From Diplosphaera chodatii (Eukaryota > Chlorophyta > Trebouxiophyceae > Prasiolales > Stichococcaceae): DNA of 64,000 nt. Below the pieces are notes generated by a model. It did not search any database, was not told where the DNA came from, and saw nothing but the letters and a program-made list of their open reading frames with translations. Shown one piece after another: positions 7,577 through 30,264 of this stretch. Where the stretch lies: NCBI GenBank assembly GCA_032358165.1, contig JAALGY010000033.1, positions 1,116,001 through 1,180,000 of the forward strand. The letters are read 5' to 3'. The position numbers were made by a program, and so were the translations under genes. The first letter of the stretch is position 1. The number at the start of each line of letters is the position of its first letter.

Positions 7577-10500
7577 AGGCATCCAGGACGTCCGGCACCC
7601 TGATGGCAGCGTCACCTTCCGCGCCGTGTACCAGCCTCAAGTTGGACCCGAGATTGGATGCCCAACAGAGACCGACGCTGAGGCTGCATATGGCAATGAT
7701 TATTGCCGCCGTGAACTGGTGCGTGACGACTTGCTTGGTTGGCAACAGCAAACGGTGGCAAAGTTGCGCACATGCGGCATTGCATCACACGCACTTCCAT
7801 ACAGTGTTGTATACAACGTGGTCCCACGCAGAGCCCTACGTTCACCGAGGATGAAGCCAATGTCCCGGGGCTGCCGGGCATCACAGATGCAGATGGGAAG
7901 CAACTGCTGCGGCCCATGCCAGCAGCAGAGCAAGCGGCGCGGCTGCTGTGGGTCCTTCTGAGCAGAAGCATATCCTTGCAAGACGCACGGGTGCGGATCA
8001 GCAGCATTGAAGCAGCGCTCGCACCCGAGGTGGGCCTGCTGCATTCACATGGTGTTGCAGACACTTCGCTTCCGGCCCGCTGCTGTATATCATGCAGCAT
8101 GCAGTGAAAATGGGCGCTTGACCCTTGTGCTGCCATCTAATCCAGATCCACAAGTGCAAGGAGGGCATCGGCAGTGGTGAGTGCTGCTCATTAGCATACC
8201 CACTGGTGCATCTGCATGCACTGCACTCGCATGGCTCACATATTTCGACCCTTTCTGCGTGCTTGAAACCACCATGCGCCACACTCGCAGAACCCCTCGG
8301 CGTGAAGCCCGCAGCACCAACACTGCAGTCGGCAGCTGCGCATCACGAGATGGCCGCACAGGGCGGCAAGACCGCAGCTGGAAAAGGCACCACAGCATCA
8401 GCATCAGCAAGCGACGCAGCTGACACGCAGCCTCCGGCAGCCTCTGCGCAGCAGCAGCAGCAGCCAGACAGCGAGGAGGCGGCTCCTGCAGAGGTCACCG
8501 TCCTCGAGACAGCAGCTGCTGAACTCGAGCCCGCAGGAGCCGACAGTCAGGCGTGCGAGGTGTGCGGCAGCACAGCCTTCGTCCAGGACAGCACCACGCA
8601 GCCGCTCGTGATGATGCTGTGCGAGTCGGAGGGCTGCTGCCACGGCCGGCACCTGGGCTGCTGCTCGCCGCCGCTGCTGGAGGTGCCCGAGGAGCCCTTC
8701 TTCTGCGCAGCCTGCAAGCCAGCGGCCCGGAAGCATGTGTGCATGGTGCGCCCCAGACGTGGACAAATTGGCAAAGAGGCACTTGTACATCATTGGTTTG
8801 GACTGCTGTCCGCACCCATGCTGCTCCGCCATCGCTCAGGCACAGGTCATTCGCACAGGTGTGTGGTGAACCTGGGACAAAGCGGTGCCCGCTCAAGATG
8901 TGCACCGGCCGCCGCTGCGGCGCCAACGCGCACATGGCCTGCCTGCCGGGCAAGGGCGTCAAGGGCAGCTGGCGCTGCGTGGAGTGCCTCGACCTGACAG
9001 CCAGGATGTGGGTGGCATGCAGCAAGAACTGTGGAAGTGTTCACAGATGCCCTCCGTCAACAATATGTCCGCAAATGTTGCAACACGCTCATTCTCTCGG
9101 TCCACGTTGCATAGACTGTGCTGCGGCATGTCGCAGCTCAGGTGTGTGCTGCATTTGCTGCTTGCAGGAGCGTGCGCAATGCGAGTTGCTCGCCACGCAA
9201 GCCCGTGATCACACGGCGGGTCAGCGGCTTGTCCGGCGGGCGTTCAGCGTCCGCCCTCGGAGCCGCCGGCTGCAGCGCTGAGGACGCCACCTCGCGACTG
9301 CGCCGCACGTCAGCTGACGGGCTGACGGCTGGTCACAGCCAGCCAGCTGCAGCAGCGCATCCAGCTCCAGTCAAGGAGCAGCCGAATGCCTCCCAGCAAA
9401 TGCGGATTGGGGCTGCTCCTGCACATGCAGATGCACATGCGGCTGCTGCAAGTGGCCACGGCAGTGACCACACAGCGGCAGCATCCGGTGTCCGGCGTGG
9501 CACAGCTGCTTCAGCTGAACCCCACTCCGACAGCAAGCAGCCAGCGCAGACAGCGTCAGCAGGTGCAGTGGACGACAGGCCGGGCAAGGGCCCAGGGCAG
9601 CCCTTCCGGCTGGCAGTCGGCAAGAGGCGGCAGGAAGACTCACTGCGGACATCAGACCAGCTGCGCCCGCCTGACAAACCAGCCGTTGCGCGCGAGCCGC
9701 CACAGCCGTCTGCAGTCCCGGCAGCAGACGCGCACCCGCCGTTCAAGCAGGCACAGCAGGTTCAGCCTGTGCACCATCATCCAGTCTCTGTGGCAGCAAG
9801 GCTACCGGCGGGGGTGTCTCAGCAACCCGTACAGCCATCTGAGACAGCAGGGCACAACACCCTCAGACGGGCGCCCGCCACTGCCAAGCCTGGAGAGCTG
9901 CGTGATCCAAACGAGGCGGCAGTGGAGCACGGCGAGCGGCCCAAGCCCAGGTGGCAGCAGCGGCGGGAGAAGCCACTGCAGCAGCAGGGCCCAGCAGCAG
10001 CCTTCCCTGCTGCCGGCAGCAAGCGTGCTGCGAGCGGCGATGTATCAGATGCAGAACGTGGAAAGCGTCAGCGAAGCCTGGCTGCCGACGAGAGGCCGCA
10101 CGATCCCTGGGCGAACCCAGAGCTGGACCCTGCATTGTCGGCGGCAGTCGCCGGCGTCATTGGGATCACTCCCACAGGGCCGACGCCGTTGCAGGGCCAG
10201 CCGGGATCCCCAGCCATGCAGGATGCGGAAGCACCCCGCGTCTGCTTGCCTCCACCCGGCCTGCGGCACTCAGCGTCCTTGCCTGCATCCAGTGCACTCT
10301 TTGATGCAGCGGAGGTGCAGCACCGGTTGAAGCAGATCCGCACCTCACTGCCGACCCGGGCTCCGGTGTTGGTCGGGCCCCAGCAGCAGGGACCGCCTGT
10401 CGCACTTGTGCCTCCGGCGCCGCCGCCGCTGCCGCAGCAGGAGCCTCCGGTGCCCCAGCAGCAGCTGCTGACGCCAGAGCCTCCCCTGCAAGTGTTGCAG

Positions 10501-13500
10501 CAGACACAGTCCCTACCGCAGTGGCAGCCCACAGACCCGCGCTTCCAGATGTGGCAACAGCGCAGGCAGAAGGTGTGGCAGGACCGCCAAGGAGGCCCCT
10601 TCGGCACAAGCGGCACCCTGCCAACGGCAGCACAGCCAGGTGTTCAGCGCATCCCCGTGCACTGGGCAGAGGGAGGCGACCTGCCGCCAGGGCTGGCGCC
10701 TGGTCCTGCTGTGACGCAAGCCGCAGAAGCTGCCAGCAGTCCGCACCTGCAGCAGCAGCAGCAGCAGCAGCAAGCACGGCATCCTGCGGCAGACCTGCCC
10801 CCAGGCCTGCAGGAACCTGCAGCTGACCCGGTGCCCAGCCCTGCGCCCCGGCTGGCGCACAGCGGATCAGCGCAGCCAGCGGAGCGGCCAACAGCGCCGC
10901 CGCCTGCTACCAGAGTGCAGCTTCCACGGGTGATCACTTCAGCACTGTTGGTGTGCACAGAACTGTGTATGGTGTTGGTGCGCGGCAGTCTGCCAGTGGC
11001 GCCAGTTGCTGGGCAGACAGGCTCAGAGGTGCTGTGATGGTGTGACACTGCAGGTCTTCTTCCCAGTCCCAGACCATGCCGCAGAGGCAGCTGCGCAGCA
11101 GGCCATGCCACCACCGGGCCTTGTCGACAACGACACCCTGGTGCACAGTGTCCCCAAGTCGTCCTGTCACATACGTGACATCTGCTCCATCGGGCACATG
11201 CTACTGGCCACTGGATGCAATGGCACGCTGACTGCGAGCTAGATGACCATATCAGCTGACAAGACGTGCTTCCTCACCACAGTTCAAGGGCTCGGACATG
11301 GTGTACCCCACGATGGAGAACATCAAGCCGATGTACCTGTCACGCGATGCGCTCGCGGCACTCTGGCCGTTGGAGGAACAGCTGCAGAAAGGTGCCGTCA
11401 TTGCCATGCTGGCATCCGGCTGTTGCTGCTCTTGCCCTCTGTTGGTGTGGTGCTCATAACCATGGACCCAGCCTTGATGGGACATGTGCTGTGCCGCAGG
11501 TGGCCAGAGCTTGCTGCAGGGGTGTTTCATTGCAGGCTCGCACGATGCCTCGCTGGCGCTCCTGCAGTCGGACACCTTCAGAGACGGCCGCCGCCATCTG
11601 TGGCACATGTACCCGGTCAGTTACCTCAGACAGTCTTTGCACTGACACATGGTATGGCTGCAAGCTGAATTGACTTACTGCACGTGCTCAACTGTGAGTT
11701 GACTGCATACTTTGCTGTGTGCTGGTTTGCAGTCGAAGGACTTGCAGCTGGCGCCTCCGCACGCTGGCGCCTGCGAGAGTCCACTGCCCCATGTGCACCA
11801 GCAAGCATTGTTGGTGCGACACCTGCCTGCGTGGTGTCCCTTGAATCAGTGCATCCGGCTGTCAACCCTGCAGCAAGTCGATGTACGGAGCATGTATGTG
11901 GTGTGTCACTCCGGGCACATGATCTCTGCGCAGGAGCTGAAGGCACGGGATGGCAGCAGCTCATTGCAGCTGCCGCGGTGGAAGTGTGCACATGTGCCGA
12001 CGAAGCTGCGCTTTGCGCGTGCCTACCTAGAGTGAGGAGCAGCTAACTGATACAATGGCTCTCGGAAAGCAAGAAGCATCCTCGGCCCTGCCATGTTGTC
12101 TGCAACTCCCCACTACATGTGCTGGCCACAGCTCACCGTCACGTCTGCCCATCATCGTGCCGTGTGCCACTGCAGGGCAGCTGAGGACCAAAAGGCAAAC
12201 AAGCTTGAGCACCTGCAGTGGTGCATCAGGACGCGGTTCGCCCACGACTCGGCGCTGGCCGCAGTGGAAGGCGACCCCGGGTCGACCGCCTGGTGAGCTG
12301 CTCGCCACGACCTGCAATCCACGCTGCGCACGCTCGTTGCCGGTGCCGCCTCGTGCTAACCCAGTGAACGGCTCGACTTGCCCCGTCTCCAGGGCAGCAT
12401 CAGAGCAGCCGGTGCCGCAGCTGCTCGAGGCCGCACAACCTGCCACCAGCAGTCGCTCACCATCCCCCGTGGTCCACCGGCACGGCTCTCCCGGCCTCCA
12501 GCAGAACGGCAGGCACGGCGGAACTGACCGCGACCGCAGCAGCCAGCCAGGACACGAGCGACATGGCACGGCGGGCCGCAGGCGCCACCAGACTCGCAGC
12601 CGCAGCACAAGCCGCAGCCCAAGCCGCAGTCCCAGCCGCAGCCGCAGCCCCGAGCGTCTCCACCGCCGACACCGCAGCGGGGACCACGACAGACGCACCA
12701 AGCGCCGCTCTTGCACGCCAGGTGCCGAGCCGGACGGCAGCAGGAAGCGGCACAGGCCGGACAGTGCCGACCGCAGGGGAGGGCGCCCAGCTTCGAGGGG
12801 GCGGCGCAGCCCCCTGTCCGGCGCGGGCCGCCGCAAGCAGCGCAGCCCGGTGCCCAAGCGGCCGCCCGCCGGCCGCAGGAGCCCCCCGCGCCAGCGCTCC
12901 GCCAGCAGGGCCAGCGGCAGGGAGCAGCGGCACGGCTCGCAGCACCCCCCCTTGCGTGAGCGGTCCCCAGCATCCCCCGAGGCGCCCGCCGAGCGCCGCC
13001 GCTCGCCTCCGATGCCACCTGCGCCCAGTGCCCATGCTGCCTCAGCGCAGCTCCCTGCCGAGCCGACCGCCAGCAATGACAGCGTGCTGGGTCCGCAGCC
13101 CGCCGCCGCAGCCCCGGCGGCTGCCGGCGGCCCCGGTGCCCAGCCAAGCACAGCGCGGTCCGGTGGGCCAGCCGCGGAGGTGCCCCCTCCGGTGCCTGCA
13201 GTACCGGCAGCGCCTGCAGCCGCAGCAACTCCCCCCACCATCAGCTGCAGCGCCGCCGGCTGCAGCGGCGATGTCGTCCGCTGCGCAGTCGGCCGTCGCC
13301 CCGGAGACGTCGCCGGTGCCGGAGGAGCCGCCCTACGAGGGGCCGCTGCCCGTGCTGCCAGACCTGACGTGCCCTGAAGGCGAGCTTGTGCTGGGCAGCG
13401 CATGCATCAGGAGCAAGAATGCTTGTGTGCGCAGCGTCATATGGCCCTTTGTCATTTGCACTATGGCTTGATTGGCAGAGGCATAAATCGTGAAGTACTC

Positions 13501-16500
13501 TGGTTGCAGGTGTGCGCATGGCGGCCCCCCCGCCGGTGCCGGGCGCACTTGCGGAGGGCCTGGAGGCCGAGGAGCTGGCGGACATCGGCGAGATCATCAC
13601 CGAGGACCAGTGCATCGAGGTGAGCGGCCTGTGAGTCATTTCTGCGCAGTCACTGCAGGGACCTCTGCGCCATGGTAAGTGTACCGCCCCGCGGTCGCAT
13701 CAGCGCCAGCCCTGCAGGGACATGATGATACAAGGAGGTTCTCGAGAGCAGCTGGTGGTGGCTTCGCTGTGTTGCAGGTCTGGCCGCAGTGCGAGCTGCG
13801 TGGCGGCCCCCCGGGGGCTCCAGAGCGGCGGCTGAGGTCGCAGACGGTGCGTGGCCTCGAGGCCTGCGCCGCAGTGGCCTGGCGGTTCGGCACTGGTGCC
13901 GCGGACCGGGCGGGCCCCGGCTGGCACCAGCAAGCAGGTGCTGCATCTGGTGACCTTGGCGGCGTGTGCTCTCTGGTACAGTCAGCTCGCACCTCTGAAC
14001 CTCTGTGCGCAAACCCTGCACGCTTGAAGCATGTGTGGCTGGCATGAAGTTTGTACATCTGCCGTGCAGGCGCTGGACTGGAGGACCCCGACAGGGCGCG
14101 GTCCGCCGGCGCAGGGCTGTCGATGGACGTGTGGCAGGGCGAGCAGCTGCTGGCGGCTCAGCAGGAGCTGACTGTCTCCAGCCTCGTCGACCTTGGCGCC
14201 CCTGGTGAGCGCGCGTGCTGTTGCTGTGAACCGGTGCCGCACGGGACAATGCGGCTCAACATTGGTAGTGGCGTCTGCTCGACAGCCAGGCACAATTCAG
14301 GGAGAGTCTGTTACCACTGCTGAGCCTGGTCAAATGTGTTCTGTCACTGACTGCGTCATCATCTGCAGGGTCGTGGGAAGCACTGAGGCAGGGGTGGGAC
14401 GGCTTCATCGGCGTGTTTGCTGGCGCCGAGGTGGACAAGGCGCCATTCCCACTCCTACGCCAGTGGAACCGCCTCGCCACTCGCCTCAAGTGCGCGTTGC
14501 TTCCTCTCGTGTCCTGTGCAGTCAGCTCGTGTCAAGCAGGAAGGCGATTCGAGGCAATCATCATTGGCAAGCTGAGCCTTTGCACTCACCAGCCACAACC
14601 CTGCAAATTCTACACATGTGGCATTGGCCATCATGTCATGGTCGCCTGCACGGGTAAACAACATCGGACTCTGATGCACAGGGCCAAAGGCGCACAGCTT
14701 GCAGCATCGGTGCGCTTCAGGGTAGATATCGACCATGTGCCGCGCATCTTCCGGCTGCTGCTGCTGCTGCCAGCCTCACGGGTCGCAGTCAAGGCCCGCA
14801 GGACATTGCCCCAGGTACATACGCAGCCTGTCTGCCTGCAGACTTGCTGGTGTGTCATGCGTACACAATAAAAGGCAGGCGCCACTCTGAATTGGATCGA
14901 CGGGCCATGCTGCTATGATCTGATCAGCATTGCGGAACGGGCAGACCACGCTGAACCTGTTGTTCTGTGTTGCCCATAGGCAGAGCAGCAGCTGTTGACA
15001 GAGCACCTGGCAGCGCTCACCAGAAACCGTGGCCAGCTGCTGGGCCTCGTCGTCGTAGAGCAAGGCACTGCCAAAGGCACAGCTTTTGAAGGCTTGGGAG
15101 CCCAGCAGGAGGCGGCGGCTGCTGCTGGTGCCTCTGGCAGTGCAGCTGCGGGCGCTGCTGCTCAACAGCCACAGCCCGCAACGGCAGCAGCACATCCGGA
15201 CACGCTTCAACCTGCTGCTGATCATACCTTGGGTGCCCCCACGGCGGGGCTTCAGCAGCCCTCAGCGTCTGTGGCGGGAGAGCACAACCCACCTGAATGC
15301 AAGGCACCAGCAAAGCCAGCGTCGAGTGCGGCTGCAGCGCGACTGCCAGCAGGCGGCGACCAGCATGCAGTTCGAGCACGCAGCAAACCGTCTAGGTGGC
15401 GTCCTGAAGCCAGGGAGTCGACCGATGCGCGCTACAGTCCTGGTGGCGACAGCAGTGCAGCACCTGGCTCGACACCAGCCCACAAACACGGCTGCACGGA
15501 TGCCAACCAGCTGCCCAAAGGCATAAGCAGGCAGGATAGCGGCAGGCGTGATCACGCCCGCCACCATCGTGGCAGCAGCAATGCTGACACGCCTGCCACG
15601 ATGCCCGACTTCATCTTGCTTGGGTCTTTCCAGCAGCCAGATGCTGGCAGCAGTGCAGCAGGCATTGCTGCAGCATCAGCACTGCCGACAGCATCGCTGA
15701 CAACTGTGGCATTGCCGGTAGTGTCAGACGAGAAGCCGCCGCTTTCGCCGCTTTCGCCGCCGTCACCCCCGCCGCCGCCGCTGCCATCCTCGCCCCCATC
15801 CCCGGAGCGGCCTTACAGTCCGCTGTTGCCCCAGTCATCGAGGCCGCCCTCTGCCCCGACGCCGCAGTGCAGCACGCCGCTGCAGCTCCCGCCACACCTA
15901 CGCCACTCCCCCTTTGCCGGGCTTCTGCCAGAGCAGGAGGCGGCGAGTCCAGCACAGCTCGCGCCGCCTGCAGCTCGTCCGGCTACGCCAGTCGGCAGCG
16001 ACATGCAGCAGAGCCCTCCGGACGAGGGCCTGGCCTCACCGATGACAGCTGGCGAGGCGGTCTCCGCTCGCAACCTGCTGCAGCCGCCCCCACGCGCGCC
16101 ACGCCAGGCGCCTCTGCGGTTGAAGCTGAGCTTCCCCGCGAAGCAGGAGCCATCGCCAAGGGCTGTGCAGTGCGGGCATGGCGGCTTATCACCCCGCAGC
16201 CAGGGCCATGCGCCTTGGTCACTTGCCGTTGGTCGTCCAGCAGCCCGCCCTTGGGGAGCAGAGCCTGGCGCTCCATATGTCGCGCCAGACATGTCGGTGG
16301 TACCGCTCGTCTTCCGCAACTTGGCTCAGGAGCATGAAGAGCGTGTGGTGGAATTCCTGGCAAAGGTGCTGAGGCAGACTCCTCGCATAATGTTTTTGCT
16401 TTGGATGCGTTTGCATGCCCGTCAATGCCCGTCAGGTGTCAAGCATCCGGCAGGTGGATGTCCACTTGCACGGTGTTCCAGGGCCATGGCACAGATGCTT

Positions 16501-17605
16501 GATGCGTCTGGGCACCCTCCTGTGCAGTGCTGGCAGTGGTGTCCCTGGCGTTTGCTGGAGGTGGAGTGCCCCATTCCATCACTGCTGCCAATGCACAGTG
16601 AGTATATAGAGTGACGTGTCAGCTGCACACGGGTGGTGGACAATGACAATTTGTGGATTGCAGTGTGTGGGTCCCAACCTGATGCCAAATCTGACAGCCT
16701 GTGCTGACATCCGCAGGCACACGCATCTTCATGATGCAGAAGCAGCGCGCCAGCCTTGTTGAAGTGTCGCACGACGGCTCGCATGTGCAGCTGCGCCACA
16801 ACGCCGTTGCCCGAGTGCAGCGCAAGCGCTGGGTGTTGGACTACCTGTACGCGCCACTTGGCAACCTGCATCTGGTGAGCCGCTGCCATGGCGATTCACT
16901 GCTTGCCAACTGGCACTGTATATGCAACAAAGTCTTGACGTGTTCTGGCATTGCCAATGCAACTGTTGATCGGCCCGACCGTCACATGAAGCCTGGTGCT
17001 ACCAGTGCTGATATCCACCACTGTGAGCTGCTCACTGGCTGCAGAGCCCGCGGCACCCATATGGTCGGATGCGCACACTGGTCTCCGACCTGCGGCAACG
17101 TTTTGCCGACCCTGCCATCGATTCGAGGGTGATCCTGCTCGGTACATGATCAACCTGCCTCTTGGCAGCGGCTTGTCAGATTCTGTGGCCAAGGTCGCGG
17201 GACGCCTCCCAACACTGTAGTTGCACGATGACACCAGTCAAGCCGCTCCACATGACCGTTTGCAGGGGCTGACGTTCACGCAGCAGCTAAAGGAAGACCT
17301 AGGCGATGCCCTGACGTTCTTCCGGGACGAGGATGGTGCGGATGTGGTGGAGCCGCGACCCCCACCTGAGGGCTCCTACCTAGCCAGGTGAATTGCTGAA
17401 CATCTACCCTATTAACCCTGATCTACCTGTGGACCATCAAGTACAAAGCCTTATCAACATCGTTGACACATTGTCGAGCCATCCGCTGCCAGGCGTCTCT
17501 TCAGTGAGTCTACACATGAGCGGTCGCAATCATGTTGCTCTGTTCTGTCTGGTGCAGGGGCAGTGCTGGTGGAGCCTGGCCACGGCCATGCAAGGTGTCA
17601 TTTGA
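7577..17605 (+). CDS. Gene A: tandem-PHD, SR-tract, SPOC-like protein (first of three paralogues)
   Basis: Undescribed multi-domain, probably nuclear protein of over 20 exons. Two PHD fingers open it. The first is at about 8551-8720 (CEVC, CESEGC, HLGC, CAAC). The second is completed by splicing 8745 to 8859 (CMVC, RCPLKMC, HMAC, CVEC). A Pro/Gln-rich linker (9168 to about 10930) leads to the module shared with B and C (exons 11283-11391, 11500-11615, 11733-12031, 12176-12292). An Arg/Ser tract follows (12393-13135), then a region of small exons shared with B (13510-14814, on into 14980). That region includes GWDGFIGVF, ASVRFRVDIDHV and GLVVVEQ and resembles a SPOC domain. After a second disordered stretch come the conserved PLVFRNL motif and helical C-terminal exons to 17605. 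Upstream exons (7577-8053) can be joined in phase but their start is not found; an alternative start is ATG 8350. The last exon is uncertain. PHD fingers bind histone tails and SPOC domains bind phosphorylated partners, so a chromatin/RNA-processing adaptor is inferred. Confidence 0.7.
10750..10773 (+). repeat. (CAG)7CAA tract coding poly-Gln in gene A
   Basis: Seven CAG codons plus CAA encode eight Gln inside the Pro/Gln-rich linker of gene A. A shorter run lies near 8450-8463 in the same gene. Such runs are common in the disordered parts of this window's proteins and may vary in length between strains. Confidence 0.9.
12590..12940 (+). repeat. Arg/Ser-repeat coding tract of gene A
   Basis: Imperfect repeats of the AGCCGCAG type encode RS-rich peptide (SRSPSRSPSRSRSPE and later RRSP/RQRS units). 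The equivalent tracts in paralogues B and C lie near 21400-21720 and 30080-30250. RS tracts of this kind are typical of nuclear-speckle and splicing-linked proteins. Confidence 0.8.
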
Positions 17606-18518: not shown

Positions 18519-21500
18519 ATGCCAGGGCCGCCGGGTAGGGGTAGGAAGTTTCGCCGCCTCAGCAAGCTGGCGCCGGGCGAGGTGGCAGGGATGACGCCGA
18601 CGTCACCGCCAGCAGCCCCTCCAGAGTCACTGGAAGACAGTGGGCAGGAGGACCGCCCACTGGCTTCTCGCCTGCCTGGGCGCAAGCGTCGCCCGCCGCC
18701 GCCCACTGCAGAGCCTGCCCCCACAGCAGAGGCTCCCACGGAGCCCGCGCCGCCCAAGAAGCGGGGCAAGCCGGTGACAGCAAAGACGAAAGGCGGAGCA
18801 GCCGCATCGTCGCAGCCCACAACCAGTGCTGCCTAGCCGTCCGTGCAGCGTGCCGAGCCCAGCAATGCAGAGAGCGGCAAAGCCCACTCTGGCAGGGACG
18901 CTGCAGCCCCCGCGATGCCCTCACCAAGCAAGGCCTGCAGCCACAGCGCAGGCTCACCAGCAGGCAGGGCGCGCAAGACTGGGGCCGAAGTCAGTGCCGA
19001 TGGTCATTCGGACGGCAATGCCAGGCCGCAGCCTAGCATCCTAGACACGGCAGCACCCACCGCTAGCACTGCTGCAGGCCAGCGCAAATTGTTTCAGCTT
19101 GCTGTGGGCCAGAAAGCACGAACAGAAGCCACCACTGCCGCAGTCCCAGCTGGAGCCAAACCAGCGCCAAAGCCCTCACCATCAAAGCAAAAGCAGCGGC
19201 CAACCAGCACGTCAGCTGCAGATCTCGCTGCATCAAAGGCTGTGATAGCAAGGCTGTTGCGAGGCGACAGCGGGGAAGAGCAACCCAGTGCATCGGCAGG
19301 GCTGCAGCTGCGGCGAGTCAGCACCGAGCCAGCTGGCAACAGCAGCAGCGGCGGCGCAACAGCCACACAGCTGCCGCCCACCCCGCCGGCGCACGCCGCC
19401 GGCCCCCTCCCCGCATGGTGCCTGCAGGAGGAGGCCTTCATCACGGGCAGGGTGCCGGATGAGCTGCCGCCGCGACCCGCGTCACCCTTGTCCAACACTC
19501 CGACAAGCGCTCGAGTGCCTACTTCGTCACCCTTTCAGACCTCCCACCATCAGCAGCGGCAGGTGCATCAGGCAGCGGTGACGCGGCAGCCGGCAGATCC
19601 GCGCCTCGGGACGTCACGCGGCCTGCCCCCCAGCAACCCCAGCAAGCCCTGGACTCCCGATCACGGCTGGCAGCAGCAGCAGCAACGGCAGGACAGCCTG
19701 GGTGCTGTGGGCGTCCCATACACCTTCGCATCTGCAGCTCCAGCAGTGAAGCAGGAGCTCAGGCCGCCCCAGTACAGCTACCACCTGCCAACCGTTGGGC
19801 GGCCAGCAGCGCAGGTCCAGCACCCACCACGGCCACCTGCTGCCCAGCAGGAGCAGTGCTCTGCTCTGCAACCGCCGAGACCCATGCACAGGCAGTCGAT
19901 TCCAGCTCCATCACAGAAACGCGCACCTGCTGTTGCCTTTGCACAGCTCACAGCCGCAGCAGTAGTGGCCGTCAAGCAGGCAGGCCCGCCAGCCTCCATC
20001 ATTAGTGATGCATCCTGCCGCTGGGTGAGCCTGTCCTCCACTACCTTTGGCTGTAGGCGTTGCTGCAAGCAGTCGTGCATGATGACTGCAGCATCGGGCG
20101 GCACTCACAACGACCAGCATGCAAACCAGCCAGGCGCACTGCCCACCAACAGCTGCAACCCGCATAGGATCCTGCCTCAAGCTGCTGAACCTGAGACTGC
20201 TGTAGGTGGAGGATCCGATGGCGGCTGTGACACCAATGGAGCTGACGGCAGCCGCGCTGCAGCCGCTGTACCTGTGCCGTGCGGACTTCAGCAGGCTGTG
20301 GCCCCTGGAACTGCAGCTGCAAGCGGGTGTGCTGCATACAATGCCTGACGTTCATACTCGTGGGGTGTGGCGGATGTACTGTTGGCACTGCAAGTGCACC
20401 CAGCACATGGTATCAAAACTTCTTTTCTGTTGGGGCCACAGGTGGGCAAAGCCTACTAGACGGCGCGCTTGTGGCTGCAGCCTTGGATGCCACTTCTCTG
20501 CTTCCACTTACCAGTGTGCTGGCAGATGGAAGGCAGCACCTCACGCACTGCATAGAGGTACTGCCCCCTGGGGTAACCATGCACTGTCTCCGATGCATTG
20601 CCTAGTGCGATGCAGCTGCTCACCTAAATGCAGCTGTTGGTACATGCTTTGGGTTCAGGTGCGTGCCATTAACATCTGCATGTGTATCACAAAGACGGAT
20701 GTCACCCCAGGCTGTCAATCGTGGCTGCAGAGCCACATGCAGCTGGAGGCGCCGCACAGCAGCATGTGCGAGGTGGCACTGCTGAGCGCGGCCCAGGTGG
20801 CGGGCCTCCAGGCGCGCGCCGCCAGCGGCAGCTGGCTGCCGCCAACGATGCGACAGGCTGCACATATTGCCACCAAGCTGGCGATGGGGCGCTCCTGGCT
20901 TGGGTGAGCCGCGATGCCATGGCTGGCGGGTGCTCTGTCTGTGATTTTTACAGCGGGCAGGGGGACCCAGCCACTTCAACATGAAAGCAGCTCCCAATGT
21001 CGTCAGTGGAATCTCGTGCTGCATGCCTGCGACAGTCATGCACGCGGTGCTATAAAGGAAGACACGGTGCACATGGCTATCGGCAGGGCCGCTGAGGTGG
21101 ACAAGCGGGCACAGCTGGACGCGGTGCGGTGGGTCGTCGACAAGGAGTTCGTGCTGCAACATTGCTTTGCAATGGTGAATGGCAAGCCATCCGCCGCCAC
21201 CAGGTGAACCGCACCGGGGTGTCGCTGCCCCCGCCAGCTCTGAGGTTGATCACGCCGAACCTTCGTCACATTGACAACATTGGACGTCATGATACTATGC
21301 AGCAGTGCATGACCATGACCGCTTCTTTGGTGCGCCGCTGTGCAGGGACGTCAGCCAGGCACCCTGGGGTGGGCGGGGCCAGTCACCGGTCCCACGCCGC
21401 CCGCAGAGCACACCGTCCAGGAGCCCGCCCCCCAAGCGCAGCAGGCGCGCCAGCCCCCCGCGCAGCCGGCGGCGCGCCGAGCGCAGCCGCAGCCGCGGCC

Positions 21501-24224
21501 GCAGCCCGGCAGACAGGCGCAGGAGCAGGCGGCGTGGGCGCCCCCGCAGCCGCAGCCGCAGCCGCAGCCGAGATCGCAGTGCCAACAGGCGGCGGAAAAG
21601 CAGGAGCCGCAGACGTGAGGATCGCAGCCGGAGCCGCAGCCCTGCGGCCAGCGATCGGAAGCGTCCGCCACGCGCCAGAAGCTCCAGCTTGCATCGCAGC
21701 CGCCAGTCCTCGGGCGACAATGTGGTGCATGAGCACTCGCTACCAGTCGCAGCAGTCACCGCAGCACAGAGCCACCGCAGCAGTGGCGGCAGTGGGCCCG
21801 TGAGTAGTGCCAGCGCCTCACGGTCTGCCAGCATCGTGGCCGACACCACTGTCGTCGTGCAGTCTGCAGACTCCGCGGGCCAGGACGCACCGACCAGCGT
21901 CGCACAGGCTGCCACCGTCTGCCAGGACGCGGCGGCTGCAGCGCCTGGGGAGGCTGCGTCTGCGCCGCCACAGCAGGCGCCAGCAGAGGGCCCCGCGCAG
22001 GACGCGGGGTCCCCCACAGCAGCAGCATCTGCGGCGCCGGCCCCCCTTGCAGCCGGACCAGCAGTGGCTACCCGGCCGCAGGCTTTGCCGCCACCGACTG
22101 CAGCTCCCGCACCGGGGGCGTTGCCACAGACCCCTGCAGCCGATGAGGCAGCTGCAGCACCACCTGCTGCCCAGCTACCTACAAGTGCAGAGCTGCCCGC
22201 AATGCCAGATTTTGATGCCGATCAGGCTGCGCTGCCTCAGCTGCCAGATCTGAAGTTTCCATCAGGTGCTGCGTCGCCGCCTCTGCTTGCCCGCAAGAGC
22301 TCAGGGCTGTCAATGGGACATGGACATGTCGCTTGGGCTTGGAGTCGTTCAACATGAGCAGTTGCTGTGCTGCAGGTGAGGCGGCGCCGGCAGCGCCTGA
22401 TGCTGGGGCGCCGTGGGACGAGTACACCGAGGACTACCTGTGGGAGATGGGCCAGGTGGTGCATGACGAGGCAGCCAGTGTTCCCCTGCAGGTCAGCGAG
22501 CGGCGAACCTTGTAGAAGGCAGGAAGATGTCAATGCTCACAGCAACACCCCTCACGTTGTTCAAGTGCCAGTCTTCGTGGTGGTGCACGACACGTTGCAT
22601 GTCGTCATGCACATCCCACTTTTGCAGACCAGCAGTGGTGTGCACACGTGACAGGTCTGGCCGCCTGGGGGCGCTGCTGACGGGGCGCCTCTGCCGCAGC
22701 ACACCCTCCGCTGGCAGATGTCATCGCAGCAGGTCGAGAGCGTGGCTGCCGACATGGTGCGCTGGGGCGGCGCAGCAACCGCCCGCGCTGCAGCAGCCTT
22801 GGACAACCACGCAGGTGCTTCACACAGAGGAACCCGAAGCATGGCGAGCATCCCCGCTGGAACTTGGGTCGTGCCTGGTCATGCAGGATGTCAGACCTTG
22901 TTCTGAACAAGCCTGACGCTTGGCAACCGACAGGCAATACCTACATGCATTTACCCAAACCGAGGCAGTTATCCATATGCAACCTGTGGTGCAGGCTGCG
23001 AGCTGACAGGGGAGCGTTTCGGCTGCCTGGGTCTAGGCCTGGAAGTGTACCAAGGCGATTGCGGCCTCGCACACCAGATGGAGCTGACCATCAGCACCCT
23101 CGTGGACATCAGCAGCCCAGGTGAGGACCGAAAACAGCAGCGCACGGCGTTTGAGGACTGGTGCTTCCGCAGGCCTGCGCAAGTCAAGGCACTGTGCTCC
23201 AGCAATCGGGGTCAGGTTCAACCCTGCAGTCTTGCCCAGCATGTGGTGCGTGTTGTGCAGGCGCCTGGCGGGCGATCCGCAGCGGCTGGGATGGGCACGT
23301 GCTGGTGGTGGCGGCGGCCGACGGCAGCGCGGATGCAGCAGGCGCCGGCCAGTCCAGGGCGCTGACGCCGGCGCAGCGGGCCTTTGCAGCCACCAAGCGC
23401 TGGGTCCGGCTGACGAGTCCGCTCAGGTCCGCCTGCTGCTCCGGCTCAGGCGTGATCAGCACCAACGCCAGTGTGGCAGTGCGCCGACTGCAATGCATGC
23501 ATGCCACGCTGCACATCGCGGTGAGGTGTGTGCAAGCAGCTCGAGCGCTCGGTCCGTGGTTGCAAAACTGACCGAGCGCTGTTTGACGGCTGCTAAGCTG
23601 ACTCTCTGGGCGCTCGTTGCCGCAGGAAGAAGGGCACCAAGCGTGCGGCGTCGGTGCGCTTCTGTGTGTCGGTGGACGGGGTGCTCACCTGCCTCCGGCT
23701 GCTCCTGCTGCCAGAGGACTCGGAGCTCGCCAGCAGCGCCAGGGCTCTCCTGCCTCGGGTACACTCTTGCTGCGTCATCGCTCAGGCGCCAACAGCTGTC
23801 TGCCAAGCCAGCGTGGTCAGCAGGACTGACCGGACTCTACCCGCTGCGCAGGATCAGCAGGCCCTGCTGGAGGCGCAGCTGGCCGGGCACAAGCGGCGCT
23901 GCCTGATTGGGCTGCTGGTGGTGGAGGCCAGCCCTGGCGTGGGCGACGCCCCCGCCCGCAGCGGCACGCCCTTCAGCAGCGCCTTTGCAACCGCGCCAGT
24001 GCCTGCCGCAGACGCTGACCCCGCACCTGCTGCCGCCGCCCTGGACGGCGCTGCAGCTGCGGGACACGCAGGACAACCCGCCGCCAGCGGCGTCGCGGAT
24101 GCCTCTGCAGCAGCTGCGGTGAATCCATCACCGCCTGCTGCTGCGGCACCAGCAGTCCCGTGTCCGCCAGCGCACGCATCTCAGGACCTGCTGCAGCGCC
24201 CCAGCCCGGCAGCTGTGCCGCCGC

Positions 24225-24273
<49 letters not shown>

Positions 24274-26653
24274 TGACCAGCAGGGAGCGCAACAGCAAAC
24301 TGCTGCGAAAGCAGCTACTGTCGCCAGCGAGGCGCCAGACCCGGCACCAGGAAGCAGCGTGCACGCAGCGGCGCCGTCTCAGTGCCATGAGGCGGCGACG
24401 GCCGTGCTGCCCAGCAGCCCGGTCGATGCGCTGGACACGGGGGGCGGGGGGGCAGACCCCCAGCGCAGCAGCCGCCGGCACACCAGGCGGTCCAAACACC
24501 GCCGCCGGAAGCCCAGCAGGGCCAAGTCAGACGGCAACAGGTCTGAGGCGCGCAGCGTGGAGCCGCACGGTGCGGAGGAGCCAGCCACCACCAGCGAGCA
24601 GCAGCCTCCAACGAAACAGAGGCGACGGGACCAGCAGCAAACGCCAGGCATGCAGCTCGATGTTGGGGACCCGCGCCGCGCGGCAGCTGCGCGACAGCCG
24701 TCGCCAGTGCCCGCGGACCCTGACGCAGCGGCTCTGCATCCACCATCGACGCTAAGGGTGACAGCGCAACGACAGTATCATCACCAGAAGACAGACTTGC
24801 AGCCAGCGGGCACAACAGCAAGGGGACATGTGTAAGGCATCTCACATCTGTACCGCAGGTGCCCGCAGCGGCGGCAGTGCGGCCATGTTCACCTCTGGGG
24901 CCCGAGTCAGCTGCAGCTGCCGTAGAGGTTTGGCCTCGGGAGGCGCTACCATGTTTTTTGAAGGTAGACTCGGCAACAGCCACCACTGGACTTGCGCCTC
25001 CACAGCTGCCCTCAACAGGCAAGGCCAAGGAATCAGCAGCCGTGCCTACGCAGCCACTATCAACAAGCAGGTCAGCAACTCCTCCTGCGCAGCCAACGCT
25101 CACAGGCAGGATCAAGGAGTCATCAAGCGCGCCCCTGCGGGCACTGCGGACTGGCAGACCCAACGAGTCAGCAAGTGTGCCTCTGCAGCCACCGCCAACA
25201 GGCGGGACCAACTGGTCGGCAGTGCCGCCGTGGCAGCCGCACTTGGGGCAGAGGCTTGGACAAGCGGCAACAGCACCTCACGCCCCTCCAGATTCTACCA
25301 AATGGCCGCGCAGCAGCAGCAGCAGCAGACGTTCGCCTGGCAGGGATGATCATGCTCCTTCGGACAAACCACGCCGGCCGCATAACAGCAGCAGCAGAAG
25401 CAAAGCTGGCAGCGATGGTGATGCACGACCGTCCAGCAGCCGCAGGCCTGATGTGTACGTGCCGCCCGACTGCCGGAATGTGCCGCTGCCATTCCGCAAC
25501 CTGCTCCTGGAGGTGGAGGAATCGCTTGTGGAGGAGCTCCAGGTACTCAGCAGCCACCACATCATGTGCCCCATGACACAGCCGCGGGTGGCTCACATGT
25601 GCAGCCATCGCTTCGTTGCAGCTTGTGTTTTTGCCGTGCAGCATGGAAAGTGGCAGGGAATACAATCCCTGGACCCCGCAAAAACCCTGCCGGCAGACAT
25701 GATCCACGAGGTCCTGGACAACCCCCGCCTGCCCGACTCACTGCGAGGTGCGCAACAGCACCTTGGGGGTTTGGCATCCACTGAAGAAGCACCAGTGTGT
25801 GACGTTGTCCTGTCACACTGGGCCACCGAATACTTGCATGGCCAGAGATCAGCAGCGGGCGTCCCCACTGTTCGTGTGCTGCATGAGCGCAGGTCTGGCA
25901 GCACTGCTGCGGGGCTCACCAGCGCGCAAGCGGCTGTTCGAGGTGACGTCTGACAACTGGCGGGCGCGAATCACGCCCGATGCACTCCGCATCATCAGGG
26001 TCAAGCGGGCGGTGCTCGACATCCTGCTCAGGAGCCCTGCACAGTACCTCCCGGTGAGGCATGGTCCCTTGCTGCACACGCCAACTTTGCAGCCGATGTG
26101 AACCTTGCAGCACAGTCTTGACTGGTGGCAGCGTGCGACAACCAGATGTGGGCACGACAGCTGGCGGCGCCGTGCCGTCCTTCTTCATGCACATCTGCTG
26201 TGCAGGGGCGGCTGCTGCATGGTGATCTCCGGTGCAAGGCGTCAGCAGTGTATGAGGCTGTGCGGCACCTTCTATCTGAAGACACTGCGGTGAGGGCACC
26301 CCGTGAAGGATCCTGCAACTGACACCGCCAATGGCGGCCAAGCTAGCCGCAGCAAGCCTGTTCCAGCTGATGCGATTGGTTGAGCGCCATGTACTGCGCT
26401 GTCAGCGATGGTGATGCTCACGTATAGCCCCCATGAGTGCACAGGAAGACAGCTTTGTCGAGCGGCTGAAGTCAGACCTTGCAGAGCATGCGGAGATCTG
26501 GACCCAGAACCGCACCAGAAACACTGTGATTGAAGCCCGGCCGCCGCCCAGGGACGTGTGCAAAGTGCGCTGCCCTTCCACTTCATCTTTGTGCAGTACT
26601 TCCCGCAATGCAGTCGGGCAAATGGCTGCATCGTGGTCATGGCATCATGGTGA
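18519..26653 (+). CDS. Gene B: SR-tract, SPOC-like paralogue of gene A, without PHD fingers
   Basis: Second tandem copy. ATG 18519 begins a basic start (GRGRKFRRLSKLAPG). A short intron (18773-18850) joins it to a long disordered exon. The shared module is at 20206-20326, 20442-20557, an exon ending at 20903, and 21087-21203. The Arg/Ser exon is 21346-22265. Exons 22376-22491, 22655-22814, 22995-23120, 23261-23426, 23626-23758 and 23852 onward match gene A one for one. Several lengths equal those of A (116, 117, 160 and 133 nt), with the same phases. The SPOC-like part reads GWDGHVLVV, ASVRFCVSVDG and GLLVVEA. A Pro/Ser run, a basic linker and the conserved PLPFRNLLLEVEESLVEELQ motif (ending 25542) precede C-terminal exons to a TGA at 26651-26653. 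Those last exons are less certain. The function is inferred from gene A. The missing PHD pair suggests it works away from histone tails or through a partner. Confidence 0.7.
24218..24274 (+). repeat. CCG repeat coding a Pro/Ser run in gene B
   Basis: Nineteen codons, almost all CCG, encode PPPSPPPS followed by eleven Pro. It lies in the linker after the SPOC-like region. Gene A has a less regular Pro/Ser stretch at the corresponding place (about 15735-15810). Confidence 0.9.
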
Positions 26654-27404
26654 TGAGGGCAGCGCGTTTGCCGGTCCTGTGACAGCTCATCAATATGGCG
26701 TGTTCAGCATCCTCGCACACCAGCTGTTGCACGCTCAGTATGCTGTCACGACGCACCGCTACCTGCTGAACGTTATATGAATGGCGACTGCAGGGCGACG
26801 TCGTGGCCGCTGCGGTGCAGATTCCAGCAGGCATGCTACGACGTGGTGTGCAGGCGGAGCCACACCCGGCCACGCATGTGTCCATGAGTCGTGAACATAC
26901 ACTACCGGCCAGGGGCTGTTGCCCAGAAGCCGGCCCCTGCTGATGGTGCAATAACTGCTTGAAGTTTGGCAAAACTGTGTACATCTGTGCTTGCCAACTG
27001 CTTTACTATAGTACTGTGCCGTGTCCATGAGGCGGGAATGTGACGGTGCTACATGCTCATGCATGGTTCTGTGCTTTACATGGCGAGTGGCTCTTTGCAA
27101 GGTCGGTTTCGCTTGAAAGGTGGAGCTGCTAGCAGCTGCATTGATCAGACTTACTGCCCTTGCATGTTTCGGGTCTGGCCCATCACCATTGTTGATATCA
27201 ATCATCGAGGAGGTGTCACCCTAATACCTTCCCCTGCTTGCATTATTATAGCAAGGCTGCCTTCAACTTGCTTATCCATCACTCAATAGTGACGCACGTT
27301 TTGGTGTGGTCCAATCTCGGTACGTGCATATTCGGCGTAATTGCTTGAGCATGCAGCTGCTGCAGCTGTGGTAATTTCGGCAGTGTCTTGCACATATTTG
27401 TTGC
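26654..27404 (+). other. Intergenic region between genes B and C
   Basis: About 0.75 kb, visibly more AT-rich than the coding parts. Only short frames. It should hold the 3' UTR of B and the promoter of C. Nothing else was recognised. Confidence 0.4.
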
Positions 27405-30264
27405 ATGATGACCAGATGCAGACTGAACCCCTCATGCAGCATGGACAGCGTTGCCAACAGTTGGGTTGTGGAGGCCTCGCGAAAGTCAGAGTGCCATGTG
27501 CTGTCATCAGATGCAAGCACCCAGCTGACAACCTCATCAGACGGATCTTACAAGCCCACTGACAGCGGTGGCTGTTCGAGCAGCAGCAGCCCCGCACCGC
27601 AAGATGACACCTTGGCAGGCACGAGTGGCAGCTTCGATGCATCAAATGCCGCAGCAGAGCCTGTGCCAAAACAGCAGCAGCTGGCCGCGTCGCCGACGGC
27701 AGGACAGCAGGCAGCCAGACGCCAGGGCTGCCTCTACAACATTGTTGCAGGCAGAAGGCAACCCGAGCTGCCACCGCCTCGGCGTGCAGCCAAGCGCAGT
27801 CGGCCTGCAGCTGTGGGGGACCTGCAGGCAGAGACACCCACTGGCATGCTGCCGGGGGGCATCATCCCCAGGCGCCCTTTGCCGCCGCCGCCGCCTCCAC
27901 GGTTTCAGGATGATGACTCGCACCAAGGAGCGCCCGGGCCTGGCTCGGACTCTGACGGGCGCCGCGCCAAACAGGCAGCGCGACGCGATATTGATGACCC
28001 GTGAGAGTGCTCTGTGGCCTGCTTTGCCATGTGCGATCATGCATCATGAACCGGACGACAGCACTGCGTGGTTGATCTGCTGGCGCCTCTGTTTACCAAC
28101 TGCAGTTATCGCATGGGGTACCGGCGGCGCCCACTCTTGCAGCGCGCTCCCATTCGCCAAGTGCATGCCGGCAGCTGGGAGAGAGCGCCGCCGCAGCCGG
28201 ACGCCTGCACCTGGGACCCACCAACCATGCAAACAGCACGCACGGCAGCGGCTGGAGCCGACAAACGAGCAGCACCACAACTAGATGCCGATCAGCGCCC
28301 ACCCAAGCGGCAACACATTGCAGCAGAAGCAAACGCTACCTCTGCTGATGCAGCCAGGCAGACCCTGCAGGCGCTGCCGGCTGCGCCCCAGAGCGTGCAG
28401 CATACTCGGCAGCGGCGCGGCAGCGGCGGGCGTGCAGTTGCCAGCCAGCTGGGTATGCTGTCAGGCCAGAGTGGTGCCGCAACGAGCAGCCGGCAGCGAG
28501 GCAGCATGCAGCAGCGGCCTGCACACCAGCTGTCCAGCATGGCTTCAGCAGATGCGGATGCAAGAGCAGGCTTACGCACCGGCAGTCAGGCCCAGCATGG
28601 CAGTGTGTGCATGGTGGACCCGCGTGCCAGCATCAGCGGTGCCACCGCAAGCGCTCCCGCTGCCCCGCCGCCCGTGCCGAAACCTGCTGGCCACAAACAA
28701 GCTTTCGGCAGCGAGCATGAGCTGATGGGTCTGATGCGGTGTCACGCTTCGTTTGCAGCCAAGTTCATGGAGGGCTGCTACACGCAGCCGACGTGCAGAG
28801 CTGAGCTGCTGCTGCTGCCGCATGTCGACTTTGCAGCGCCATCAGCAGATGCGCAGGAGTTTCTGGCAACCACCGTCGTGCCTGACGACATGCCACTGGT
28901 AGCACTGCAGCAGCAGGTGATGTGATGGCATAAAACGTGATGTATGTGGACAGGGAGACTGCCAGCACGCAGCATGTGCAGATGAGTTTGCGCCAGCATT
29001 TGCAGCCATCGACTTGCATGTTGACCTGCGACACTGCCGCTGCATAGGATGCACCTAAAGAGGTGGTGGAGCCCACACGCAACAATGTCTGGATGACGTA
29101 CCTGTCGCTGCGGCAGTATGCAGCGCTCTGGCCCCTTCAACAGCAGCTTGAGGCGTGTGAGCATCTTTCCAGTCCATCCCGAGCGCGGCCCACAATCTGT
29201 AGTGGAGTCCTTGTTGGCTGCAGCCCCATGTAGCGTAGGGGCTGACGCAGAAAACTACCACTTGCAGATGGGCTTGTGATATACGAGGGCGCGTTTCTGG
29301 CTGGCGAGGAATTTGGCACCCTGCAGCAGCTGACGGTCGTGACACTCGGCAATGGCAGCCTGAGATTGCAGCACAACTGTCAGGTGCACATCTGATAGCA
29401 TCTTACTAGCAAGTCAAGCCCAACGATGCCAATGATACCCTGATACAGACGACTGTGCCTCAAATGTGCTGACTCTCACTGCACCTGCCTCACACTTTAC
29501 GTGGTGTGTGCAGTCGGGCATCAGTCTGGATCCACCTTTCGATGGCATAGCGGCTGCAAGCAGGGTGGACGACGAGCAGCTGGAGACGCTGCAGATGCGC
29601 AGCTGCGGGCTGCAGCTGAGGCGTGCAGACCTTGCACGCACAGCCACAGCGCTCAACATGGGCTTCAAGTGGGCCAGGTGTCAACCATCTTTCTTGGAAC
29701 AGGCTGGGTGGCGGTACGCAGGTTGCCGCCTCAAGCCATGTTTCTGTGGCAATGTCATGTTCTCAGGTTGAGAACATGTGTTGTGGCAAGTATATTGCAG
29801 GGCGGACGAGTCACAGAGGCCGCAGCGCCTGGCGGCTGTGGTGAGATGCCTCAGGGAGGGCCGTGTGGCTGCCCAGTACTACGATGCTGTGGAGCTGCCA
29901 GAGTCAAACACCGCGCCCACCAGGTGCACCGATCTGTGATGTGTTTGCTTGCGGAAGGTTCCCAAGCTTATGCTGTGCGACGACTTCAGGCAGAAGTCGG
30001 TTCAGGTCCCAGGATCGTCTGATGTCGCATCTGCAATCGCTGGGCAGGGCGGTCACAATATTGAGATGAACCACGCTGCAGGTCGCAGCCGCAGCATGGC
30101 GAACAGCCGTCCAAGCAAATCGGCAGCAGGCGCCACAGCAGCTACCATCGCAGCAGTCACAGGAGCAGCAACAATCGGACCAACAGGAATGATAGCCACA
30201 GCAGCAGGCGCCAGCGCAGTCACAAGAGCAGCGACCGTCACGGCGCCAGGTGAGCTACAGCTGC
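27405..30264 (+). CDS. Gene C: third, shortened paralogue ending near the SR tract
   Basis: From ATG 27405, a Ser/Ala/Gln-rich disordered region (27405-27999) splices in phase to 28102, giving DIDDP then YRMGYRRRPLL, and continues to about 28917. The shared module follows with the same intron phases as A and B: exons 29048-29156 (109 nt, as in A), 29268-29383 (116 nt, as in A and B), 29514-29677, and about 29802-29923. Motifs are YLSLRQYAALWPLQQQL and EGAFLAGEEFG. A short Arg/Ser/His tract (about 30080-30260) ends the recognisable similarity. The SPOC-like and C-terminal parts of A and B are absent, and glycosylasparaginase begins about 0.5 kb later. The true stop is not resolved. One frame continues to 30628 with YEWYDYTRFEVPPF, weakly like B (WDEYTEDY). 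It could be a short functional paralogue or a 3'-truncated copy. Confidence 0.55.

What the first reader, a model, noticed from the sequence alone, without database searches (positions are those of the whole stretch)
7577..30264. Tandem triplication of an undescribed PHD / SR / SPOC-like gene family
Genes A, B and C lie head to tail and share a module encoded by exons of identical phase and, in several cases, identical length. The 'GGQSLL' exon is 116 nt in all three. In A and B the exons of 117, 160 and 133 nt also match while their proteins have diverged. The architecture (two PHD fingers in A only, disordered linker, shared module, Arg/Ser tract, SPOC-like region, conserved PLxFRNL C-terminus) matches no family I know. 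PHD-plus-SPOC proteins such as DIDO/PHF3/Bye1 have a TFIIS-like domain and a different order.
Basis: partly seen in the sequence, partly recalled or inferred. Interest (0 to 1): 0.85.

Follow-up and report, generated by a model that had tools for sequence, protein, structure and literature searches.

The report
Algal PHD/RS tandem gene array
Three neighbouring genes of an alga-like genome descend from one ancestor and make large, probably nuclear proteins built from conserved parts that match no domain family searched; one also carries a histone-reading type of zinc finger, and calling one part "SPOC-like" was not borne out by the tests.

Summary
The tandem array is real. Gene A (7439-17391, 25 exons, 2252 aa), gene B (about 18915-26564) and gene C (27441 to about 30250) share an orphan module, M1. 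The genome holds a second, collinear copy of the window on another contig, about 75% identical in DNA, which gives a strong check: in A, 5 of 5 exon length differences are multiples of three (introns 7 of 23), and dN/dS is 0.11-0.25 in the PHD pair, M1 and SPx against 1.4-2.9 in the wrong frames. SPOC is not supported: a SPOC gene of the same genome scores 42 bits, A and B score nothing. No TFIIS-like, AP2 or other Pfam domain besides PHD reached a cut-off in the parts scanned; M1, SPx and the C-terminal block match no solved structure by sequence. One exon of A has a close relative in an unidentified ENA contig. Best reading: a lineage-restricted family of chromatin/RNA-processing adaptors; the mechanism is inferred, not shown. 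Interest moderate.

The parts
7439..17391 (+). Gene A: 25 exons, 2252 aa (7439-7479, 7577-7718, 7832-8029, 8146-8176, 8291-8745, 8859-9007, 9168-10929, 11054-11140, 11283-11391, 11500-11615, 11733-11813, 11934-12031, 12176-12292, 12393-13162, 13251-13379, 13510-13619, 13778-13937, 14070-14204, 14369-14489, 14682-14814, 14980-16365, 16537-16597, 16717-16874, 17045-17128, 17266-17391)
   Evidence: Open in the window and in the C26 copy with the same start and stop position; 24 of 24 introns with conserved splice dinucleotides, 23 GT-AG and 1 GC-AG, though the gene finder itself rewarded conserved splice sites
7439..8029 (+). N-terminal conserved block of A (exons 1-3); looks AP2-like by eye, no Pfam match
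   Evidence: dN/dS 0.36 in frame, 0.87 and 1.77 off frame; no Pfam hit at E<=10 for A or A'
8554..8715 (+). PHD finger 1 (C4-H-C3 pattern)
   Evidence: PF00628 23.4 bits in A, 31.5 in A', cut-off 24, domain scanned alone; 19.8 and 20.8 in longer pieces; PDB matches led by KAT6A, E 4e-6, for A'
8740..8987 (+). Putative PHD finger 2, atypical, split by the intron 8746-8858
   Evidence: Weak NSD-type PHD 19.6 bits, cut-off 23.9; both fingers together dN/dS 0.14
9168..10929 (+). Low-complexity linker of A
   Evidence: Single 1762-nt exon, C26 1777 nt; dN/dS 0.41
11283..12292 (+). Module M1 of A (orphan; contains the GGQSLL exon 11500-11615); exon 11054-11140 just before it may also belong (by eye)
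   Evidence: dN/dS 0.15; homologous to B and C; no Pfam match in 6 of 6 members, no PDB match better than E 0.54
12393..13162 (+). Exon of A with the Arg/Ser tract
   Evidence: 25 RS/SR pairs in 213 residues against 15.4 in shuffles; dN/dS 0.61; partly a CGCAGC hexamer array
13778..15063 (+).
   Evidence: dN/dS 0.11; homologous to B; no SPOC match
16270..17391 (+). C-terminal block of A, from a few residues before PLVFRNL to the stop
   Evidence: dN/dS 0.29; homologous to B
18915..26564 (+). Gene B: 18915-20024, 20206-20326, 20442-20557, 20731-20903, 21087-21203, 21346-22265, 22376-22491, 22655-22814, 22995-23120, 23261-23426, 23626-23758, 23852 to about 24706, about 24857-25542, 25642-25747, 25893-26053, 26206-26289, 26445 to at least 26564; both ends and the linker intron unsettled
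   Evidence: 10 of 10 tested exons (20206 to 23758) with conserved GT and AG; C-terminal exons found in B' by tblastn
20206..21203 (+). Module M1 of B
   Evidence: dN/dS 0.11, off frame 1.57 and 2.82
21346..22265 (+). Exon of B with the Arg/Ser tract
   Evidence: 33 RS/SR pairs in 128 residues against 20.4 in shuffles, 0 of 5000 shuffles reach it; dN/dS 0.50
22655..23935 (+). Block SPx of B
   Evidence: dN/dS 0.25, off frame 2.47 and 1.39; score 311 to A, best shuffle 72
25453..26564 (+). C-terminal block of B (PLPFRNL onward)
   Evidence: Alignment A5; five B' pieces 51-80% identical by tblastn
27441..30254 (+). Gene C: 27441-28000, 28106-28916, 29048-29156, 29268-29383, 29514-29668, 29801-29923, last exon from about 30082 or 30095 (frame unsettled)
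   Evidence: 5 of 5 tested exons (28106 to 29923) with conserved GT and AG; the first and last exons were not part of that count
29048..29923 (+). Module M1 of C
   Evidence: dN/dS 0.19, off frame 2.25 and 1.47

Best explanation
A, B and C are paralogues in an old tandem array that was already there before the two genome copies of this organism split. A is the fullest form: two PHD-type zinc fingers (the second uncertain), a flexible linker, the orphan module M1, an Arg/Ser tract, the conserved block SPx, a second flexible linker and a conserved C-terminal block. Most likely (inferred) A is a nuclear adaptor: PHD finger 1 docks on the histone H3 tail, the Arg/Ser tract is phosphorylated and draws splicing or RNA-processing factors, and M1, SPx and the C-terminal block bind partner proteins. 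B, and less completely C, keep partner-binding parts without a detected PHD finger and would serve as partners or competitors of A away from chromatin. Shown: gene structures (by comparison of two copies, without transcripts), common ancestry, purifying selection, the PHD finger of A, the enriched Arg/Ser tract of A and B. Inferred: nuclear location, every binding partner, adaptor function.
For: Second copy with conserved frames and splice sites. dN/dS 0.14 PHD pair, 0.15/0.11/0.19 M1 of A/B/C, 0.11/0.25 SPx of A/B, against 1.39-2.90 off frame. A-A' 83%, A-B 35% identity over M1 to SPx, so the A/B duplication is older than the split of the copies. PHD finger 1 matches PF00628 and, for A', KAT6A among solved structures. 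RS/SR pairs enriched in A and B, same counts in A' and B' (25 and 33). A PHD protein that also binds the phosphorylated polymerase tail is known in PHRF1 (PMC7392320, passages), whose PHD-containing region binds the H3 tail (PMC6979384, passages).
Against: No transcript, location or binding data. No detected polymerase-, RNA- or histone-modifying domain. The Arg/Ser tract lies partly in a CGCAGC repeat and is weakly constrained (dN/dS 0.50-0.61; for A one wrong frame gives 0.68), so it could be a by-product of repeat expansion. PHD finger 2 is below every cut-off and PHD finger 1 of A itself is just below. C lacks SPx and the C-terminal block, and its Arg/Ser tail is not established.
Confidence: 0.4

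Rival explanations
1. The family is a far-diverged branch of the PHD-plus-SPOC transcription factors (DIDO/PHF3/Bye1, or plant AIPP2-like proteins), and SPx is a SPOC domain beyond the reach of sequence methods.
For: PHD finger and a C-terminal conserved block in one protein; by eye SPx begins with a W-x-G motif and ends in a helix followed by a strand, as SPOC domains do (recalled). The poor single-sequence model has strand-helix-strand-helix-strand at its end.
Against: PF07744 finds the SPOC domain of another gene of the same genome at 42 bits and none in A, A', B, B'; alignment to that domain is at shuffle level; hhalign probability 0.1, a weak test; no TFIIS-like domain in the parts scanned.
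Confidence: 0.2
2. A PHRF1/Asr1-like or SCAF-like factor: histone reader plus Arg/Ser tract plus a C-terminal domain that binds the phosphorylated tail of RNA polymerase II.
For: Order PHD, Arg/Ser, conserved C-terminal block is similar in outline; PHRF1 has PHD, RING and a C-terminal SRI domain (PMC7392320, passages). SCAF proteins are recalled.
Against: No RING and no SRI or CID domain by Pfam in the parts scanned.
Confidence: 0.15
3. What is called A is two or more genes, or B and C are decaying copies with no function.
For: B has an in-frame TAG at 18834 and B' a 2-base deletion upstream of a shared ATG; the C-terminal half of B diverges fast; C is partial.
Against: A is one unbroken frame through 25 exons in both copies; M1 of B and C and SPx of B are under strong purifying selection, and so is the first exon of B from 18915 on (0.30, off frame 1.50 and 1.38); the stretch of B with the TAG shows no clear coding constraint (0.75 in frame, 0.86 and 1.22 off frame), so B probably starts downstream at 18915.
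Confidence: 0.15

Closest known systems
DIDO / PHF3 / Bye1 (PHD, TFIIS-like domain, SPOC)
   Same: PHD finger in a large protein with further conserved C-terminal blocks
   Different: No TFIIS-like domain in the parts scanned and no detectable SPOC domain; an Arg/Ser tract and an orphan module M1 instead
PHRF1 / Asr1 (RING, PHD, SRI)
   Same: Couples a PHD finger to a conserved C-terminal block
   Different: No RING, no SRI domain in the parts scanned
AIPP2/PAIPP2 of the Arabidopsis BAH-PHD-CPL2 complex
   Different: M1, SPx and the C-terminal block match no Pfam family, the AIPP2 SPOC-like family (name recalled) included; the Arg/Ser tract was not compared
SR-related proteins
   Same: Arg/Ser tract rich in RS/SR pairs in A and B
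   Different: No RNA-recognition motif found in the parts scanned; the tract sits in the middle of a long protein, in A together with PHD fingers
FPA/Spen-type SPOC gene of the same genome (C17, C45)
   Same: Nothing beyond chance
   Different: SPOC at 42 bits; used here as the positive control

Membership tests
PHD finger (PF00628) | C4-H-C3 zinc-ligand pattern in finger 1 | tested here: met
   Read in the sequence of A and A'; consensus pattern recalled; A' fingers match KAT6A and other PHD structures, E 4e-6
PHD finger (PF00628) | Finger 1 scores over the curated cut-off of 24 bits | tested here: inconclusive
   Domain alone: A' 31.5, A 23.4; longer pieces: A' 20.8, A 19.8
PHD finger (PF00628) | Second finger over a PHD cut-off | tested here: not met
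   15.8 bits (cut-off 24) and NSD-type 19.6 (cut-off 23.9)
SPOC (PF07744) | Profile match of the domain | tested here: not met
   No match in 4 of 4 members of A1 at E<=10; control SPOC of the same genome 42 bits, cut-off 25
SPOC (PF07744) | Barrel fold with a basic phosphoserine-binding patch | not testable with these tools
DIDO/PHF3/Bye1 | TFIIS-like domain between PHD and SPOC | tested here: not met
   No such Pfam match in the pieces scanned of A and A' between the PHD fingers and the end of SPx
PHRF1/Asr1 | RING finger and SRI domain | tested here: not met
   None in the pieces scanned
SR-related protein | Tract enriched in RS/SR pairs | tested here: met
   A 25 against 15.4 (18 of 5000 shuffles reach it), B 33 against 20.4 (0 of 5000); C 6 against 6.3, not enriched
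SR-related protein | Role in splicing, nuclear speckle location | not testable with these tools
   No expression or imaging data
AP2 (considered for exons 1-3 of A) | Profile match PF00847 (accession recalled) | tested here: not met
   No Pfam match at E<=10 for A or A'

The most novel reading that the evidence does not exclude
M1, SPx and the C-terminal block are three undescribed domains that define a green-algal family of chromatin-to-RNA-processing adaptors, kept as a tandem array with a division of labour between a PHD-bearing member (A) and members without a detected PHD finger (B, C).
Probability: 0.2. Interest if true: 0.6.

Novelty: new variant of a known kind. Interest (0 to 1): 0.42.

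Why it matters
If the reading is right, algae of this lineage evolved their own link between a histone reader and RNA processing, made of domains that the profile library searched does not name. The array, kept in two diverged genome copies, gives ready-made gene models and constraint maps for testing it, and M1, SPx and the C-terminal block are candidates for new domain families.

Tried and rejected
SPOC identity of SPx: tested by Pfam on four members, by hhalign and by shuffled alignment against a SPOC domain of the same genome; not supported. The hhalign test is weak (about 1.6 effective sequences against a single one) and had no positive control of its own; phmmer with that same SPOC domain reached solved SPOC structures only at E 0.5-1, so single-sequence methods are weak here. 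AP2 identity of exons 1-3: seen by eye, no Pfam support. Winged-helix or LOTUS look of the C-terminal block: by eye only, no Pfam or PDB support. An upstream start of B at 18519: rejected as likely start because of the TAG at 18834, the 2-base deletion in C26 and the lack of clear coding constraint. The automatic gene finder merged all genes into one and put introns into exon 3 and exon 21 of A; I corrected these by the C26 alignment. Its scoring rewards splice sites that C26 keeps, so the 24 of 24 is not an independent test; the dN/dS frame contrast and the exon lengths lean on it less. The intron 13163-13250 of A is inferred: by eye the C26 copy would also be open without it. A first dN/dS value for the PHD pair (2.24) was a frame slip of mine and was redone. 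The frame of the last exon of C: 0.44 in the Arg/Ser frame, 1.32 and 0.52 in the others, not decisive. The genome search with the C-terminal block missed B itself, so I tested C again with eight queries. Relatives in viral contigs: none. PDB by sequence: only matches at E 0.18 or worse for SPx, M1 and the C-terminal block. Papers: one search found no paper; others (15 of 36 listed; 12 of 531; 12 of 1,255; 8 of 40; 1 of 1) listed none whose title or abstract start names such an array; beyond listings I saw passages of four papers.


Full report
What was checked. I read the stretch, built exon models with a two-sequence gene finder and corrected them on the alignment to a second copy of the locus.

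A second copy of the locus. The window lies at C27:1116001-1180000 of an assembly of 85.6 Mb in 55 contigs. Searches with parts of A found a second locus on contig C26, minus strand. blastn then gave 11 pieces in order, from window 2-3860 at C26:3,129,147 down to window 58176-63971 ending near C26:3,064,450, at 65.6-79.8% identity, plus three small pieces out of order; the largest gaps lie in 26057-27437, 51461-52295, 43445-44175 and 24480-25160. The aligned stretch 3997-33500 averages 75% over ungapped columns. PRP8, a gene that is usually single-copy (recalled), also occurs twice, with 7 exon matches each on C15 and C47. The assembly therefore seems to hold two diverged genome copies: a hybrid or old duplication, or a mixed sample. 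I cannot tell which.

Gene A. The model has 25 exons from ATG 7439 to TGA 17389-17391 and encodes 2252 residues. The C26 counterpart is open over the same exons, starts at the same ATG and stops at the same place with TAA. Of 24 introns, 24 keep their splice dinucleotides, 23 GT-AG and one GC-AG; the gene finder favoured such sites, so this is consistent rather than independent. Five exons differ in length between the copies and 5 of 5 differences are multiples of three; of 23 introns that differ, 7 are. This makes it unlikely that the Arg/Ser exon and the SPx exons belong to different genes, but transcripts were not available, and upstream exons before 7439 are not excluded.

Genes B and C. 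B shares with A the module M1, the Arg/Ser tract, the block SPx and the C-terminal block. Its intron phases equal those of A at 11 of 11 shared positions from M1 to the end of SPx and at 4 of 4 in the C-terminal block. The start of B is uncertain: an open frame from 18519 is cut by TAG at 18834, the C26 copy has CAG there but lacks two bases further on, and the stretch shows no clear coding constraint. Both copies share an ATG at 18915, the likely start; from there on dN/dS is 0.30 (off frame 1.50 and 1.38). The linker intron near 24707-24856 and the 3' end of B are not settled. C has M1 with 4 of 4 intron phases equal. The genome searches showed no SPx or C-terminal match at C, but one search also missed B, so I repeated the test: four SPx and four C-terminal queries all match the A and B stretches and none the C stretch of the window or of C26 at E<=0.01, while M1 queries match C. 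The M1 hit at C27:1145060-1145152 is C itself. The end of C is unsettled: the Arg/Ser-like frame after 30082 depends on an acceptor that C26 does not keep, its dN/dS is not decisive (0.44 against 1.32 and 0.52), and its RS/SR pairs are at the level of shuffles.

Homology and age. Local alignment scores against 500 shuffles: M1 A-B 264 (best shuffle 57), A-C 154 (59), B-C 108 (58); SPx A-B 311 (72); C-terminal block A-B 127 (59). From M1 to SPx, A and A' are 83% identical, A and B 35%. The duplication that gave A and B is therefore older than the split of the two genome copies.

Constraint. dN/dS between the two copies: PHD pair 0.14, M1 0.15 (A), 0.11 (B), 0.19 (C), SPx 0.11 (A), 0.25 (B), C-terminal block of A 0.29, N-terminal block of A 0.36, linkers of A 0.41 and 0.54, Arg/Ser exon 0.61 (A) and 0.50 (B), exon 2 of C 0.50. 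The same bases read in the two other frames give 1.39-2.90 for the PHD pair, M1 and SPx, 0.97 and 1.12 for the C-terminal block, and 0.68 and 1.30 for the Arg/Ser exon of A, so in the last case the frame signal is weak. The linkers, the Arg/Ser exon of B and exon 2 of C had no off-frame control.

Domains. In Pfam only the PHD finger reaches or nears a cut-off: 31.5 bits in A' and 23.4 in A against 24 when the domain alone is scanned, and 20.8 and 19.8 in longer pieces. For A', solved structures by sequence are led by KAT6A at E 4e-6. AIRE, BAZ2 and PHF21A are among the hits; AIRE and PHF21A fingers prefer the unmethylated H3 tail (PMC6979384, passages), but methyl-lysine and other readers are in the list too, so my expectation that PHD finger 1 reads unmodified H3 is a guess. 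The second finger stays below all cut-offs. The scans covered pieces: of A residues 1-359, M1, the Arg/Ser exon, SPx and the C-terminal block; of A' residues 1-955, M1, SPx and the C-terminal block; of B the first exon, M1, SPx and the C-terminal block; of C all before M1 and M1 itself. Not scanned: the linker of A after SPx (about 1725-2075), and the Arg/Ser exon and long linker of B. M1 has no Pfam match in 6 of 6 members. SPx has DUF4390 in 2 of 4, best E 0.13, far below cut-off. The C-terminal block has GRIM-19 (E 0.028) and MazE (E 0.1), each in 1 of 4. I take these as chance. No solved structure is matched by sequence better than E 0.18.

SPOC. PF07744 searched over the genome gave two weak single-exon hits on C17 and C45 and none in the window. 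Spliced by eye, the C17 domain scores 42 bits, so the profile works in this genome; A, A', B and B' give nothing at E<=10. Alignment of SPx to that domain is at shuffle level (A: 72 of 500 shuffles reach the score; B: 480 of 500) and hhalign finds nothing, though with so few sequences it is a weak test.

Relatives elsewhere. Of five protein searches that were sent in proper form, four failed on time and one was answered: a single hit, P0001, 59 residues from an ENA contig of 4955 bases, E 1.5e-3. Its first 32 residues match the A exon before the GGQSLL exon at 28 of 32 positions, and 26 of 32 in A'; the match ends where the intron of A begins (read by eye). So an A-like exon exists in another sequence record, probably of another organism. 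No relative was found in viral contigs.

How it may work. A histone-reading type of finger joined to an Arg/Ser tract and conserved blocks suggests an adaptor between chromatin and RNA processing. This is inference. Known proteins that work in a similar way are PHRF1, which binds the phosphorylated polymerase tail through a C-terminal SRI domain (PMC7392320, passages), DIDO and PHF3, which do so through SPOC (PMC9834408, passages), and the Arabidopsis BAH-PHD-CPL2 complex (PMC7718874, passages). None is a family to which A can be assigned here.

Verdict. A real, old, constrained tandem family with one recognisable domain type and three unnamed blocks.

Noticed in passing
Window 1-64000 and C26 about 3,064,450-3,129,147: Nearly the whole window has a collinear copy at about 75% identity; PRP8 is also present twice (C15, C47). 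The assembly seems to hold two diverged genome copies.
   Followed up: partly
18519-18914: Open frame upstream of gene B with an in-frame TAG at 18834 where C26 has CAG, while C26 lacks two bases near 18911; high DNA identity (0.86-0.90 in its two 250-base bins) without a clear coding signature.
   Followed up: partly
24250-27500: The end of gene B and the B-C gap align at only 0.43-0.67 identity to C26, below the rest of the array; the C-terminal exons are still there in B'.
   Followed up: partly
13380-13509: GC-AG intron in gene A, GC kept in both copies.
   Followed up: yes
about 6500-6830 (minus strand) and 30857-32421: Flanking genes: serine carboxypeptidase S10-like (PF00450, 20.7 bits, just under the cut-off of 21.9) and an asparaginase_2 family gene (PF01112, 71.4 bits).
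   Followed up: partly
L043, L044 (C17, C45): FPA/Spen-like SPOC gene, apparently in both genome copies; 42 bits when the C17 copy is spliced by eye.
   Followed up: partly
G000:C47:1716102-1716269: Another PHD-type match (E 5.2e-4), with a weaker one on C15 (E 0.094).
   Followed up: no
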